Below are positions 2,855-40,209 of a stretch of 64,000 bases of DNA, piece by piece. Origin of the DNA: Malaciobacter marinus (GTDB lineage Bacteria; Campylobacterota; Campylobacteria; Campylobacterales; Arcobacteraceae). The stretch lies in NCBI RefSeq assembly GCF_003544855.1, contig NZ_CP032101.1, positions 2,108,001-2,172,000 of the forward strand. The letters run 5' to 3'. The notes under the pieces are model-generated. The model ran no database searches, was not told the DNA's origin, and saw nothing but the letters and a program-made list of their open reading frames with translations. A program made the translations under genes and the position numbers. How positions within the stretch are numbered: position 1 is the first letter of the stretch; every line of letters starts with the position of its first letter.

Positions 2855-3175
2855 TTATATTTTTTTCAATTTATCTTGAACAAAATCGCTATACAAAGCT
2901 AATACTTTTTTTCTGTTTGTTTCTTTAAAAATAGATACACCAACTTTTTTCAAATCTTCAATTGGTAAATCATTTGTATCTGATGTAACTAAAGCATTAA
3001 AACTATTATTTTTAAATAATTTAACAATATCTTCATTTCTATTTTCTAACATTTCAACTGAACTTATTGTTTGTCCACTTAAATTTAATACTGTAAAATA
3101 TTTTGCATTTGTAAAGTTTGTTGCAACTTCTGACATATAACTTAGATTTTCAACTGTAGGAAATACAATTCTCAT
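2855..3175 (-). CDS. NifX/NifB-C-terminal-like (dinitrogenase FeMo-cofactor biosynthesis domain) protein
   Basis: A 106-residue single-domain protein that looks like the dinitrogenase iron-molybdenum cofactor biosynthesis fold. It begins MRIVFPTVENLSYMSEVATN, continues with an AKYFTVL strand and an EMLEN turn, and has the alternating beta-alpha pattern of the family. These proteins bind iron-sulfur or FeMo-type clusters, but free-standing copies occur in organisms that do not fix nitrogen, and no nif gene is in this window. It is divergent from the DUF134 gene at 3596, whose C-terminal half belongs to the same fold, so the two probably share a biological role. Family assignment is by appearance and is moderate. 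Confidence 0.6.
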   Translation of the reverse strand: MRIVFPTVENLSYMSEVATNFTNAKYFTVLNLSGQTISSVEMLENRNEDIVKLFKNNSFNALVTSDTNDLPIEDLKKVGVSIFKETNRKKVLALYSDFVQDKLKKI

Positions 3176-3274
3176 TTTGTACCTTTAGAGTATATTATTT
3201 TTATAAAAGGATTTTTGTAAAAACTTAATATTTATTTGTATTTATCAAAAAAGTTTTTACAAAAATTATGGTGT

Positions 3275-3280
3275 TATAAT
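3275..3280 (+). promoter_or_regulatory. -10 element upstream of the candidate structured RNA
   Basis: A perfect TATAAT lies 8-10 bases before the first helix of the candidate RNA. There is no good -35 box, but the upstream stretch is T-rich (3253-3259), as is normal for Campylobacterota housekeeping promoters. It would place a start near base 3286, at the base of the first predicted helix. Confidence 0.5.
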
Positions 3281-3283
3281 CTT

Positions 3284-3525
3284 GATTGACCCAAGAGAGG
3301 AGTGTTATTTTGTATGTTAGGCTAGACAACTAAACAAAATGATCAATCTAATTATATTTGTTAATATATCTTCATACTTAACTCTAAAATTCATTCAACT
3401 AAGAATTAATTTGAGAGAGCGGGTTCACTTAGTTCTAATATGAAATAAAATATTATTTCATACAATTAATTCGAGTTAAGCCTTATGAACATATGACCGA
3501 ATGATATCATTTATTTGGTCATATG
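3284..3525 (+). ncRNA. Candidate multi-helix structured RNA in the gap before the DUF134 regulator
   Basis: The 420-base gap 3176-3595 holds no convincing protein gene but is full of complementary segments. Domain 1: GATTGA 3284-3289 with TCAATC 3343-3348, enclosing ATTTTGT 3307-3313 with ACAAAAT 3334-3340. Domain 2 is a three-way junction: CTTAACTC 3377-3384 with GAGTTAAG 3473-3480 encloses AACTAAG 3397-3403/CTTAGTT 3428-3434 and the ten-pair TATGAAATAA 3439-3448/TTATTTCATA 3453-3462. Domain 3: CATATGACCGAA 3490-3501 with TTTGGTCATATG 3514-3525 (one G-T wobble). A TATAAT sits just upstream, and the DUF134 gene appears to have its own promoter at about 3561. An independent small RNA or a long regulatory leader are both possible. 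I do not recognise it as tmRNA, 6S, SRP, RNase P or a riboswitch class I know. Random helices are common in AT-rich DNA. Confidence 0.4.
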
Positions 3526-3555
3526 TCAAGTACTTTTCCATGTTTTTAACAAGAT

Positions 3556-3566
3556 TATGCTAAAAT
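3556..3566 (+). promoter_or_regulatory. Extended -10 promoter for the DUF134 gene
   Basis: TATGCTAAAAT has the form of an extended -10 region 30 bases before the DUF134 start codon. With the AAGGAG ribosome site at about 3586-3591 it gives a short leader that excludes the structured region upstream. Confidence 0.45.
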
Positions 3567-3595
3567 TCATTATCCAATAAATTCAAAGGAGTTTT

Positions 3596-4186
3596 ATGGC
3601 AAGAGAAAAACTAGAACGTAAATTAAATTTAAAACCAGTATGTAAATATTTTGGTCCAAAAGATAAAGAAGCTAAAGAAGATGTTGTACTTTTACATGAA
3701 GAATTAGAAGCTATTCACCTTATGGACTCTTTTTGTATGTATCAAGAAGATGCAGCAAAAAAAATGAATGTATCAAGAGCAACATTTGCAAGAATTGTAA
3801 AAAGTGCTAGAAAAAAAATATCACTTGCATTAATAACAGGAAGTAATATAAAAGTACATGAAGTTAAAAATGAATTTCGTATTGCTATTTGTTCAAAAAA
3901 ACAAGATGAACTTGAATATGCTGAAGCTGAAGCTGAATATATTTGGATTGTATTTATAAAAGATTATAAGTTAAAATCTCAAAGCTGTATTAAAAACCCA
4001 ATGTATAAAAATGAAAATGAAGCTACATGTAATGTATTACCTGATTTACTACATGATTATGGAGTTAACTATTTTATGATAAGTGATGTAGATTATGATT
4101 TAAAAATTTCATTAATTGCAAAAGGTATTTATCCAATCTTAAAAGAAGAAATTCAATTAGAAAGTCTAGTAGATATTTTTCAGTAG
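3596..4186 (+). CDS. DUF134 helix-turn-helix protein fused to a NifX-like domain
   Basis: A 196-residue putative cytoplasmic regulator. The N-terminal half (about 1-95) looks like the DUF134 family: a basic start, a CKYFGP motif and a sigma-factor-like helix-turn-helix (YQEDAAKKMNVSRATFARIV, about 49-68) with conserved ELEAIHLMD before it. The C-terminal half (about 96-196) has the beta-alpha pattern of the dinitrogenase iron-molybdenum cofactor domain, a fusion known for this family. A strong AAGGAG site precedes the ATG. The divergent gene at 2855-3175 encodes the same type of C-terminal domain alone. The ligand and target genes are unknown. The fusion suggests DNA binding controlled by a cluster or metal cofactor, which is inference. 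Confidence 0.75.
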   Translation: MAREKLERKLNLKPVCKYFGPKDKEAKEDVVLLHEELEAIHLMDSFCMYQEDAAKKMNVSRATFARIVKSARKKISLALITGSNIKVHEVKNEFRIAICSKKQDELEYAEAEAEYIWIVFIKDYKLKSQSCIKNPMYKNENEATCNVLPDLLHDYGVNYFMISDVDYDLKISLIAKGIYPILKEEIQLESLVDIFQ

Positions 4187-5153: not shown

Positions 5154-5645
5154 TTGAAAAAACTTTACTTAATTAGACATGCTAAATCTTCATGGAAAAA
5201 TTTGACCTTATCAGATTATGATAGGCCTTTAAATAAAAGAGGAAAATCAAATGCACCATTTATGGGAAATTTACTTCAACAATTAGGAGTTAAACCTGAT
5301 ATTATAGTTTCATCTCCTGCATATAGAGCAAGAAAAACTGCACAATTAATAGCAAAAGAAGTAAAATATAATAAAAAGAACATTGACTATTATGAAGATT
5401 TATATGAAGCATCAGTAAATAATATTATTGATACTTTAAAATACTTAGATGATAAAAATAATGTAGTATTTTTAATAGGGCATAATCCAAGTTTAAATTT
5501 ATTTGCAGAAGAATTTTTAGATTTTGATGAAAATATACCAACGTGCGCAATATTAGAAATAGAATTTTCTTGTCAATTATGGCAAGAAATCAATAGTTAT
5601 AATTGTAAATTAATAACATTTGAATATCCAAAGAAATATTTATAA
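5154..5645 (+). CDS. SixA-type phosphohistidine phosphatase, first copy
   Basis: Member of the histidine phosphatase (phosphoglycerate mutase-like) superfamily in its short SixA form, which removes phosphate from histidines of phosphotransfer domains. The 163-residue protein carries the catalytic RHA motif (Arg8-His9) and the second histidine His110 in LIGHNPS. Translation starts at TTG: a good AGGAG at 5144-5148 sits five bases before it and no ATG is better placed. The next gene is a diverged second copy 37 bases downstream. Several histidine kinases exist in this region, but the actual substrate cannot be read from sequence. Confidence 0.85.
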   Translation: MKKLYLIRHAKSSWKNLTLSDYDRPLNKRGKSNAPFMGNLLQQLGVKPDIIVSSPAYRARKTAQLIAKEVKYNKKNIDYYEDLYEASVNNIIDTLKYLDDKNNVVFLIGHNPSLNLFAEEFLDFDENIPTCAILEIEFSCQLWQEINSYNCKLITFEYPKKYL

Positions 5646-5682: not shown

Positions 5683-6156
5683 ATGAAAACACTATATTTA
5701 ATGAGACATGGACAAAAGGAACTAGATTCAACAAAAGATGATTTTGATATAAAATTAACAAATAAAGGAATCAAATATATTGAAGATATTTCAACTAAAC
5801 TTGTTGAAAATAATATTCAAATTGATTTAATTGCTTCAAGTCCAGCTTTAAGAGCAAAAGAAACAGCACAAATTGTTGCAAATAAATTTGGCTATGAGAA
5901 ACCAATAATATATAATGAAGTAATATATCAAGCATTTTTAAATGAACTTCATGAAATAATCACATATACATATGATACTGTTGATTCTATGATTTTAATT
6001 GGTCATAATCCATCATTAGCTATATTGGCTTTAAATTACTGTGGCTATAAAGAAGAGTTTGATATGGGCTATGTTATTAGAATTGATTTTCATTGTGATT
6101 CATGGATTGATGTGTCAAAAAATAATGCAGAATTTAAAAAAGTTTATAAAATATAG
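5683..6156 (+). CDS. SixA-type phosphohistidine phosphatase, second copy
   Basis: A 157-residue paralogue of the preceding gene, with RHG (Arg8-His9) and LIGHNPS (His108) conserved, and ASSPALRAKETAQIV matching the first copy's SSPAYRARKTAQLI. The two share the fold but differ over much of their length, so the duplication is not recent. They are probably co-transcribed. The stop codon lies in a hairpin that also ends mnmE. Confidence 0.85.
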   Translation: MKTLYLMRHGQKELDSTKDDFDIKLTNKGIKYIEDISTKLVENNIQIDLIASSPALRAKETAQIVANKFGYEKPIIYNEVIYQAFLNELHEIITYTYDTVDSMILIGHNPSLAILALNYCGYKEEFDMGYVIRIDFHCDSWIDVSKNNAEFKKVYKI

Positions 6157-29933: not shown

Positions 29934-31658
29934 CTATCTTAATAGATTTTCTTTTGCAACTTCTACTAATTCATCCCCTTTTCCATTTATAATAGTTCTT
30001 AACATATAAATACCAAATCCTTTAGCACTTTCAAAAGTAATCTTTGGAGGCATTGTAAGTTCTTGTTTTGCTGTTGTTACATCAAGTAAAGCAGCACCAT
30101 CGTATTTAAGAAAATCTTTTATTGTACTTTCTAACTCTTCTGGTTTCTCAACCTTATAACCTTTTACTCCAGCAGCATTTGCAATTGCTGAAAAATCAGG
30201 ATTTGTTAAATCTGTATTTTCATATAAATACCCACCAGCTTTCATCTCAATTGCTACAAAACCTAAAGAACTATTATTATAAATTACTATTTTAGCTTTA
30301 ATTTTATGCTGAATAAGTGTTAGAAAATCTCCCATTAGCATAGCAAAACCACCATCTCCACATAAAGCAATCACTTCTTTATTAGGACTACTAACTTTTG
30401 CTCCAATTGCTTGAGGAAGTGCATTTGCCATTGAGCCATGATTAAATGACCCAATCAGTTTTCGTTTACCATTCATATCTAAATATCTTGCTGCCCAAAC
30501 AGTAGGAGTTCCAACATCACAGCTAAATATTGCGTCATCACTTGCATATTTATTAATTAGTTTTGTTAAATATTGAGGATGAATCAAACCTACTTTACTA
30601 TTTTCACTTGCTAATTTATCAAATTTCTCAACTGTATTTTTATAATGTTTTAATGCACTCTTTAAAAATATATTATTCTCTTTTTTATCGATTTTTGGTA
30701 TTAACATTTCAAGAGATGATTTTATATCACCTATTAATGCTAAATCAAGTTGGCAGTGTCGTCCTAATGATTCTGGTTTTATATCTATTTGAATAATTCT
30801 TGCATCTTGAGGGTAAAATGCTTTATAAGGAAAGGTAGAACCTAAGACAAGTACTACATCAGAATTATCCATTGCATAATAACCTGATTCATATCCAATA
30901 AGTCCTGTCATTCCAACACTATTTGGATTTTCCCATTCTATATGCTCTTTTCCTCCTAATGCATGAACAACTGGCGCATTTAGTAATTGTGCAACTTTAA
31001 TTACTTCATCATGTGCATTTTTACACCCTGCCCCACATAAAAAAGTAATCTTTTCATTTTCATTTAATATTTTTGCTAGTTTTATTATATCATGCTCATC
31101 AGGTAATACTTTTGGCAAACTAGGCTTACTTAATAATAACTTTGAGTTTTCAGGCATTGGATTTAACATAACATCACCTGGAATAACTATTACACTTACA
31201 CCTTGTTTTAAAATCGCTTGTCTTATTGCTGTTTCTAAAATATTTGGCATTTGTTCAGGGTTTGAAACCAATTCACAAAATATACTACACTCTTTAAATA
31301 AATCTTGGGGATGTGTTTCTTGAAAATATCCACTTCCAATCTCACTTGAAGGAATATGTGAAGCAATTGCTAAAATAGGAACACCTTTTCTTTGACAATC
31401 ATAAAGACCATTTATAAGATGCAAATTCCCAGGTCCACAAGAACCAGCACATACAGCAATATCTCCACTTACTTTAGCATCAGCTCCTGCTGCAAAAGCT
31501 GCTGTTTCTTCATGCCTTGTACCTATCCACTCAATCTTATTTAATTTTTCTAAACTATCACTTAATCCATTTAAAGAATCACCAGTGATTCCCCATATTC
31601 TTTTTATACCTACTTTTTCTAAAAGTTTTGCGAAATACATTGAAATATTGTCATTCAT
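29934..31658 (-). CDS. poxB: Pyruvate dehydrogenase (quinone), PoxB-like
   Basis: Thiamine-diphosphate/FAD flavoenzyme that oxidises pyruvate to acetate and passes electrons to membrane quinone. The 574-residue protein has the three-domain layout: an N-terminal Pyr domain with GTRHEETAAFAAGADAKVSG (catalytic Glu), a central FAD domain (about 185-330) and a PP domain with the thiamine-diphosphate motif GDGGFAMLMGDFLTL. The C-terminal tail (about 540-574) is where PoxB binds lipid. Other members of this superfamily (acetolactate synthase, pyruvate oxidase) are less likely by overall pattern. It is monocistronic. Confidence 0.85.
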   Translation of the reverse strand: MNDNISMYFAKLLEKVGIKRIWGITGDSLNGLSDSLEKLNKIEWIGTRHEETAAFAAGADAKVSGDIAVCAGSCGPGNLHLINGLYDCQRKGVPILAIASHIPSSEIGSGYFQETHPQDLFKECSIFCELVSNPEQMPNILETAIRQAILKQGVSVIVIPGDVMLNPMPENSKLLLSKPSLPKVLPDEHDIIKLAKILNENEKITFLCGAGCKNAHDEVIKVAQLLNAPVVHALGGKEHIEWENPNSVGMTGLIGYESGYYAMDNSDVVLVLGSTFPYKAFYPQDARIIQIDIKPESLGRHCQLDLALIGDIKSSLEMLIPKIDKKENNIFLKSALKHYKNTVEKFDKLASENSKVGLIHPQYLTKLINKYASDDAIFSCDVGTPTVWAARYLDMNGKRKLIGSFNHGSMANALPQAIGAKVSSPNKEVIALCGDGGFAMLMGDFLTLIQHKIKAKIVIYNNSSLGFVAIEMKAGGYLYENTDLTNPDFSAIANAAGVKGYKVEKPEELESTIKDFLKYDGAALLDVTTAKQELTMPPKITFESAKGFGIYMLRTIINGKGDELVEVAKENLLR

Positions 31659-31767
31659 AAAAAATCCTTTATATTATAGTTGACATATGCTCATTATAAT
31701 CACATTGTTTTTAATATAGATTAATTATAGATTGTAAAGTTACAATTAAACTAAATAATAAAATTTT

Positions 31768-39913: not shown

Positions 39914-40013
39914 TTTAGTTATACCTTTAGTTTTAAGTAAAACTTATTGAATCAGGGCTAATACTTAAAAATACTATCCTTATACTTTAACAATAAAAAA
40001 GATATATATTATT

Positions 40014-40146
40014 TTCTCTTCCATCCAGACTTTAACTGTTGGTTTTGGATTTACACCAAATCTGCTGACCTTTATAAAATAAAGCGCTCGTGGACTTCTA
40101 TATTGTATAGTTACCACCAGTAAGGAATCTCACCTTGCCCTGAGAA
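40014..40146 (-). promoter_or_regulatory. FMN riboswitch (RFN element)
   Basis: The minus-strand RNA has the RFN order: TCAGGGCAAGGTGAGATTCC, then TTACTGGTGGTAA, then GTCCACGAGCGC, then CAGATTTGGTGTAAATCC, AAAACCAACAGTTAAAGTC and TGGATGGAAGAG closing the aptamer. These are the conserved junction sequences of the six-helix FMN aptamer. It lies in the leader of ribB, so FMN is expected to lower riboflavin synthesis. No clear intrinsic terminator is visible between aptamer and ATG, so control may be at translation. Confidence 0.95.
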
Positions 40147-40209
40147 ATAAATTTTGATTATTTTATCCAAATTTTCATTATTTAAAAGTTAGAAAAATCA
40201 AAAGAAAGC

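What the first reader, a model, noticed from the sequence alone, without database searches (positions are those of the whole stretch)
3275..3525. Candidate structured RNA with three helical domains before the DUF134-NifX regulator
Seen: a TATAAT box is followed directly by six mutually compatible helices in three domains, including a three-way junction with perfect 7-, 8- and 10-bp arms, all in a 420-base gap without a credible gene. The downstream gene seems to have its own promoter at 3556-3566. It does not match tmRNA, SRP, 6S, RNase P or riboswitch motifs I know. Inference: an independent small RNA or a metal/cofactor-sensing leader linked to the two NifX-type genes on either side.
Basis: partly seen in the sequence, partly recalled or inferred. 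Interest (0 to 1): 0.6.

Follow-up and report, generated by a model that had tools for sequence, protein, structure and literature searches.

The report
Regulated minus-strand small RNA candidate
The gap holds what looks like a conserved regulatory RNA, but read from the opposite DNA strand to the one proposed, and its most striking hairpin is really a DNA switch (promoter plus repressor sites) that probably turns this RNA on and off.

Summary

(1) The strongest hairpin (about 3486-3530) is a DNA element: a double palindromic operator (TGAACATATGTTCA-like) around a sigma70 promoter (TTGACA-17-TATCAT) that fires on the MINUS strand. All 31 aroC-linked DUF134 loci read have this TTGACA, 30 with a -10 at 17 nt. 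The same operator precedes cydA beside a second DUF134 paralogue. Without the palindrome the fold z-score drops from -4.9 to -1.6.

(2) The rest (about 3205-3495) behaves like a minus-strand RNA: in 6 of 6 genomes of the genus, with invariant loops. A covariance model of the Malaciobacter core finds the syntenic RNA in another genus (E 1.5e-4 to 1.4e-3 over 81 kb). A syntenic covarying RNA occurs in 16 genomes of a third genus.

(3) Pairs predicted on both strands show 30 G-U cells against 2 A-C on the minus strand; other strand measures are mixed.

Best reading: a DUF134(NifX-like)-controlled RNA with pyrimidine-rich loops, stand-alone in two genera, possibly a nifX-like leader elsewhere. No RNA data exist; targets and trans action are inference, and an anti-Shine-Dalgarno test gave no support.

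The parts
3205..3495 (-). proposed RNA transcript, ends approximate (5' end about 3494, 3' end about 3205-3211)
   Evidence: promoter position; conserved in 6 of 6 genomes of the genus; no transcript data
3280..3352 (-). core domain: closing stem, inner hairpin, pyrimidine-rich single strand
   Evidence: covariance model R2 finds it in 6 of 6 genus genomes and the syntenic core of three genomes of another genus; by energy alone it is no better than shuffles (z -0.6)
3291..3306 (-). pyrimidine-rich unpaired strand AACACUCCUCUCUUGG, the same in 6 genomes apart from the length of the G run at its edge
3317..3333 (-). inner hairpin UUAGUUGUCUAGCCUAA; UCUAGCC shared with the second genus
3397..3434 (-). 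second hairpin, 7-bp invariant stem, 24-nt loop with CCCGCUCUCUC
3377..3384 (-). 3' arm of the long-range 8-bp helix closing the hairpin-2 domain
   Evidence: pairs in 6 of 6 genomes; 2 G-U in one genome on the minus strand
3473..3480 (-). 5' arm of the long-range 8-bp helix
   Evidence: in M. halophilus it lies next to the -35 because of a deletion
3439..3462 (-). 10-bp hairpin, not conserved
3211..3266 (-). 16-bp A+T-rich inverted repeat with 24-nt loop, T-rich tail on the minus side: candidate terminator
   Evidence: not called a terminator by the scan
3501..3529 (-). sigma70-type promoter TTGACA (3529-3524), 17 nt, TATCAT (3506-3501), TG before the -10
   Evidence: best match in 3100-3700, 11 of 12 (10 sites of 9 or more found, 4.5 expected); conserved
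3516..3529 (.). operator site 1, overlaps the -35
3486..3499 (.). operator site 2, downstream of the -10
3275..3280 (+).
3596..4186 (+). DUF134 regulator, HTH plus NifX/ORP-like C-terminal domain; presumed repressor
2855..3175 (-). 106-aa NifX/ORP-fold protein downstream of the RNA
3194..3221 (-). weak candidate separate promoter for the 106-aa gene (TTTACA-16-AATAAT)
   Evidence: 10 of 12

Best explanation
A structured RNA of roughly 280-290 nt is transcribed from the minus strand, from a promoter whose -35 and start region lie inside two palindromic operators probably bound by the divergently encoded DUF134/NifX-like regulator (autoregulated repressor arrangement). It folds into a closed hairpin domain (8-bp long-range helix plus a 7-bp hairpin) and a core domain (covarying closing stem, inner hairpin with a UCUAGCC loop, pyrimidine-rich strand), and in this genus probably ends at the 3211-3266 inverted repeat. 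Most likely it works as a redox- or metal-linked base-pairing sRNA whose invariant pyrimidine-rich loops contact purine-rich mRNA sites. Shown by comparison: conservation, covariation, strand bias of the shared pairs, promoter/operator conservation, synteny. Inferred: transcription, repression by DUF134, the 3' end, trans action, the signal. My confidence is about 0.75 for a minus-strand RNA, about 0.8 for the operator/promoter, and about 0.45 for trans action.
For: Genus: 6 of 6 genomes, loops invariant. Model R2 built from the genus core: over 22 loci, its only hits outside its own genus at E up to 1 are the syntenic core of another genus (4 loci from 3 genomes, E 1.5e-4 to 1.4e-3, same strand); the combined fitted alignment gives covariation 0.347 against 0.159 shuffled, 0 of 500 shuffles as high. 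A third genus: 16 genomes, 21 pairs, 6 with changes on both sides, score 0.249 against 0.169, 0 of 500, slid controls at most 0.083. Strand: pairs predicted on both strands, 30 G-U cells against 2 A-C on the minus strand. Promoter: TTGACA in 31 of 31 loci, 30 with a -10 at 17 nt. The region is kept without the 106-aa gene in 6 loci of 2 genera, so it is not only its leader. Operator upstream of cydA in 9 of 16 loci and in the own genome, each next to a DUF134 gene by the places.
Against: No transcript data. RNAalifold energy of the longer region favours the plus strand in the window's genus (-60.7 against -57.0) and in g14 (-63.4 against -55.1); it favours minus in g15 and g19. In the union of pairs predicted on either strand there is no strand bias (109 G-U against 132 A-C). 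The core alone in the genus covaries weakly (62 of 500 shuffles as high) and by energy is no better than shuffles (z -0.6 minus, -1.1 plus). Without operator and inverted repeat the fold is only z -1.9. In the scan of 104 whole genomes R2 found only one of the three genomes of the second genus (G035, E 0.005). In M. halophilus a deletion removes the -10 and one operator and would leave the 5' arm of the 8-bp helix upstream of a start from this -35. Complementarity to a Shine-Dalgarno consensus is not above composition (mean z -0.14 minus, -0.84 plus, lower meaning stronger). The 11-mer target search found no target shared between genomes. No consensus terminator was called. R2 does not find g14, g10 or g19.
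Confidence: 0.55

Rival explanations
1. Minus-strand 5' leader (cis-regulatory, attenuator or sensor) of the 106-aa NifX-like gene, co-transcribed from the operator promoter.
For: The gene lies downstream on the same strand in 25 of the 31 loci (6 g1, 16 g19, 1 g10, 2 g9); in g9 the operator promoter sits directly before it; g19 shows no terminator-like repeat before its start (by eye).
Against: In g14 and g15 (6 loci) the region is kept without the gene. The g1 inverted repeat lies between RNA and gene, and a separate weak promoter is possible.
Confidence: 0.27
2. Plus-strand sRNA or leader from the TATAAT at 3275 as proposed by the first reader, perhaps with GGA motifs binding CsrA.
For: TATAAT kept in 6 of 6 genus genomes; lower plus-strand alifold energy in g1 and g14; stronger plus-strand single-sequence z; GGA motifs seen by eye on the plus strand.
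Against: Changes in the shared stems are G-U on minus and A-C on plus; TATAAT is common by chance; no -35 found for it; by eye it is not kept in g14, g15 or g10.
Confidence: 0.1
3. No RNA: only conserved DNA sites (operators and inverted repeats) in A+T-rich DNA.
For: The operator palindrome and the inverted repeat carry most of the folding signal.
Against: Covariation in two sets with 0 of 500 shuffles; cross-genus model hit; invariant loops away from the promoter.
Confidence: 0.08

Closest known systems
RsaE/RoxS of Firmicutes (PMC4409812, passages read)
   Same: C-rich unpaired regions proposed to pair with Shine-Dalgarno sites; transcription by a regulator responding to O2/NO; here the operator is shared with a cytochrome bd gene
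   Different: No Rfam hit here, other phylum, different regulator type (DUF134, not a two-component system); targets unknown
RepG of Helicobacter pylori (PMC8295292, listing with the start of the abstract only)
   Same: Campylobacterota sRNA that targets a G-repeat in an mRNA leader; two g14 copies carry C9-C10 tracts on the RNA strand
   Different: No sequence or synteny relation was tested beyond the Rfam scan
Unnamed Arcobacter sp. L intergenic candidates of Stav et al. 2019 (PMC6429828, passages read)
   Same: Related bacteria; structured intergenic regions confined to Arcobacter left unnamed

Membership tests
Any Rfam 15 family | covariance-model score at gathering cut-off | tested here: not met
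   none in 3176-3600 at gathering; best chance-level E 0.23
Trans-acting sRNA (RoxS-like way of working) | stand-alone transcript with own promoter and terminator | tested here: inconclusive
   promoter conserved; terminator only a candidate; no RNA data
Trans-acting sRNA (RoxS-like way of working) | loops complementary to Shine-Dalgarno or mRNA sites | tested here: not met
   Shine-Dalgarno complementarity not above composition; no shared target found with one 11-mer. This lowers the anti-SD claim, not the existence of the RNA
Riboswitch or cis leader of the nifX-like gene | always upstream of the regulated gene on the same strand | tested here: not met
   region kept without the gene in 6 of 29 loci that have the region; in the 3 g14 loci its identity rests on place
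CsrB/C-type CsrA sponge | repeated GGA in hairpin loops on the transcribed strand | tested here: inconclusive
   GGA motifs seen by eye on the plus strand, not counted; the shared-pair strand test disfavours that strand
DUF134 (PF02001) | score over the curated cut-off | tested here: met
   61.8 bits against cut-off 27
NifX/ORP (PF02579) | sequence score over the curated cut-off | tested here: not met
   106-aa protein 19.2 against cut-off 26.3 bits; DUF134 C-terminus no hit
NifX/ORP (PF02579) | fold | tested here: met
   106-aa model against 2yx6, E 2.7e-9, TM 0.83; DUF134 model against 2yx6, 1o13 and 9ian, E 2.6e-5 to 2e-4

The most novel reading that the evidence does not exclude
A new family of Arcobacteraceae sRNAs, the first known RNA output of a DUF134/NifX-domain regulator, sharing its operator with cytochrome bd, so that an iron- or molybdenum-cofactor-like sensing domain drives both a respiratory oxidase and a base-pairing RNA.
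Probability: 0.35. Interest if true: 0.7.

Novelty: new member of a known kind. Interest (0 to 1): 0.5.

Why it matters
DUF134 proteins are annotated as of unknown function. This locus gives them a candidate operator (TGAACATATGTTCA, usually two copies about 30 bp apart), candidate targets (cydAB, a NifX-fold gene, an RNA) and an autoregulatory layout that can be tested directly. If the RNA is real it is a conserved, probably environmentally controlled sRNA in a family of bacteria for which the paper listings seen here showed no sRNA study by title or abstract start.

Tried and rejected
Rejected: tmRNA, SRP, 6S, RNase P and known riboswitches (no Rfam hit); a repeat or mobile element (one full copy in the own genome; the other 48 matches at E up to 10 are short); a small protein (ORFs of 20-34 aa only; one-base indels inside the conserved core across the genus). 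The anti-Shine-Dalgarno idea was tested with mononucleotide shuffles and got no support. Target search with the 11-mer AGAGAGGAGTG, up to 1 mismatch, in 4 of 6 genus genomes: 61 hits against 30 for the reversed pattern; 23 of the 61 are AGAGATGAGTG. Context was read for 31 of 61. A few stand at an ORF start (L187, L196, L204, perhaps L221), but none of the three proteins tested has a counterpart at another hit apart from a partial 42% match; the full set was not tested, and hairpin 2 was not searched at all. Model R1 (third genus) hit 6 of 398 genomes drawn from the order, all of that genus; whether its other 10 genomes were in the draw is not shown. R2 in 104 family genomes: 16 with a match at E up to 1, namely 6 of the genus, G035 at the expected place (E 0.005), and 9 others with 10 hits at E 0.05-1 taken as chance and not followed; G019 and G115 of the second genus gave none there, though their loci match. 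In one search one of three proteins was taken with wrong coordinates and turned out to be aroC. In one search three g19 sequences were cut wrongly; this was redone. The NifX start-site table failed for most loci (my pattern), so nothing is claimed from it. Papers: DUF134 (22 papers, listing only), Arcobacter small RNA / sRNA (listings), DUF4492 (none), Malaciobacter transcriptome (listing), anti-SD sRNAs (listing), RoxS (listing, passages), PMC3847290 (passages), PMC6429828 (passages). No listing showed a description of this RNA by title or abstract start.

Full report
Place. The window lies in a 2.92-Mb single-contig genome. Genome G003 of the same genus has the same upstream sequence as a contig of Malaciobacter halophilus DSM 18005, hence the genus name used here. 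The gap 3176-3595 separates a minus-strand 106-aa gene (2855-3175) from a plus-strand DUF134 gene (3596-4186); aroC lies beyond the former and an M48 peptidase gene beyond the latter. Pfam sequence scores for the small protein stay below cut-off.

The observation. The fold is real on the given interval (z -4.9 plus, -3.1 minus), but it rests largely on the palindrome at 3486-3530 (z -6.5 alone). 3273-3480 gives z -1.6 (plus) and -1.9 (minus); 3205-3495 on minus, with the inverted repeat and part of the operator, gives z -4.2; the core alone gives z -0.6 (minus) and -1.1 (plus). The palindrome is conserved across genera and is a DNA element. In all 31 aroC-linked DUF134 loci read (6 of the window's genus g1, 16 g19, 3 g14, 3 g15, 1 g10, 2 g9) the minus strand has TTGACA, and in 30 a hexamer matching TATAAT in at least 5 of 6 places follows 17 nt on. 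TGAACATATGTTCA-like sites sit on the -35 and beyond the -10; one locus (L071) has a degenerate second site and one (L046, M. halophilus) a deletion. The 31 loci are 30 of the 55 matches (48 of 104 genomes searched had a match) plus one locus; the other matches were not read at this level, apart from the cyd-linked ones below.

The regulon. The own genome has a second DUF134 gene (40% identical) divergent from a small gene and cydA, with the same double site (I recognise the small gene as DUF4492 from memory, not from a call). Upstream of cydA the sites occur in 9 of 16 loci: g1 5 of 5, and G069, G016, G006 and G011; the 7 loci of g14 and g19 lack them. By the places each of the 9 stands next to a DUF134 gene. 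Genomes with the RNA locus but no cydA hit exist (for example G014, G019, G034, G036). So the site goes with DUF134 neighbours, and the aroC-linked copy seems to control something else. In g9 that is the 106-aa gene directly. In g1, g10 and g19 the structured region lies between, and in g14 and g15 (6 loci) the region is there and the 106-aa gene is not.

The RNA. In g1 the region is in 6 of 6 genomes. Its loops are invariant while the closing stem changes. The core pairs in 98.1% of cells with two double changes, weak by itself (62 of 500 shuffles as high). A covariance model of the core (R2), run over 22 loci (80,804 bases), returned at E up to 1 only g1 and the syntenic g15 loci (E 1.5e-4 to 1.4e-3, 4 loci from 3 genomes), all on the minus strand. 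The fitted alignment shows 7 pairs with double changes (71 of 500 shuffles reach 7) and a covariation score of 0.347 against 0.159, 0 of 500; such an alignment leans towards its model. In 104 whole genomes G035 was the best hit outside the genus (E 0.005), while G019 and G115 of the same second genus gave no hit in that scan, which uses stricter filters. In g19, 16 sequences aligned without a model give 21 pairs, 6 with double changes, 97.8% paired and 0 of 500 shuffles, around a nearly invariant interior loop AUUGUCUUUUCCCUAGUCAUUACUUUUUUUCACUC (one sequence has one change, the U run varies). R2 does not reach g19, g14 or g10, so homology there rests on place and general layout only.

The strand. 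Pairs predicted on both strands show, read on minus, 27 G-U and 2 A-C in g19, 1 and 0 in g1, 2 and 0 in g14, 0 and 0 in g15. The 8-bp helix found by hand pairs perfectly in 5 of 6 g1 genomes and with two G-U in the sixth, which on plus would be two A-C mismatches. Against this, the union of pairs has no bias (109 against 132), and the longer-region alifold energy favours plus in g1 and g14 and minus in g15 and g19. I weigh the shared pairs most, because they are chosen without preference for a strand; most of that signal comes from g19. The cells are not independent, since related genomes share changes.

The 3' end. The 3211-3266 inverted repeat (16 bp, loop 24) is kept in g1. Similar repeats with other loop lengths stand at the same place in g10, g14 and g15, with a compensated change in two g15 genomes and T-rich sequence on the minus side in most (by eye). 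The terminator scan does not call it, so it is a candidate only.

How it may work. The regulator probably represses the RNA and loses its hold under a signal read by its NifX-like domain (inference). The RNA may pair with purine-rich mRNA sites through its loops. The tests I could make gave no support for that: Shine-Dalgarno complementarity was not above composition, and one 11-mer search gave twice the control's hits but no target shared between genomes. RoxS/RsaE (PMC4409812, passages) is the nearest in way of working, with an O2/NO regulator and C-rich loops; this is analogy, not membership. The leader reading remains open for g1, g10 and g19.

A result against. In M. halophilus a deletion between the two sites removes the -10 and would place the 5' arm of the 8-bp helix upstream of any start from this -35. 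Either the promoter has moved, or that arm is not needed there, or this part of the reading is wrong.

Noticed in passing
G000:C1:2239922-2242343: A second DUF134 paralogue shares a double-operator promoter region (2241665-2241701) with a divergent small gene and cydA; this suggests DUF134 control of cytochrome bd.
   Followed up: partly
window 31680-31693: TTGACATATGCTCA, an operator-like site (3 mismatches to the palindrome; about 9 such expected by chance in the window, 10 found), just upstream of a minus-strand thiamine-pyrophosphate enzyme gene (29934-31658) and next to a TATAAT.
   Followed up: partly
window 40009-40151, minus: FMN riboswitch (Rfam RF00050, 120.3 bits).
   Followed up: no
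G000:C1:90869-91099: A third, partial DUF134-like stretch (39% identical, one stop inside).
   Followed up: no
L058 and L067, upstream of DUF134: Two g14 genomes carry a run of 10 and 9 G on the plus strand (C on the RNA strand), perhaps variable in length; the third g14 genome (L069) has only 5.
   Followed up: no
L046/L131 upstream of DUF134 (M. halophilus): Deletion between the two operator sites that removes the -10 of the minus-strand promoter.
   Followed up: partly
L202 around position 1500 (G005): A G9 tract next to AGAGAGGAGAG, seen in the target search.
   Followed up: no
L072, L073 (g9): Three operator-like sites instead of two between DUF134 and the NifX-like gene.
   Followed up: no
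window 5154-5645 and 5683-6156: Two tandem genes that look alike (SixA-like phosphohistidine phosphatases, label recalled from the sequences, not searched).
   Followed up: no
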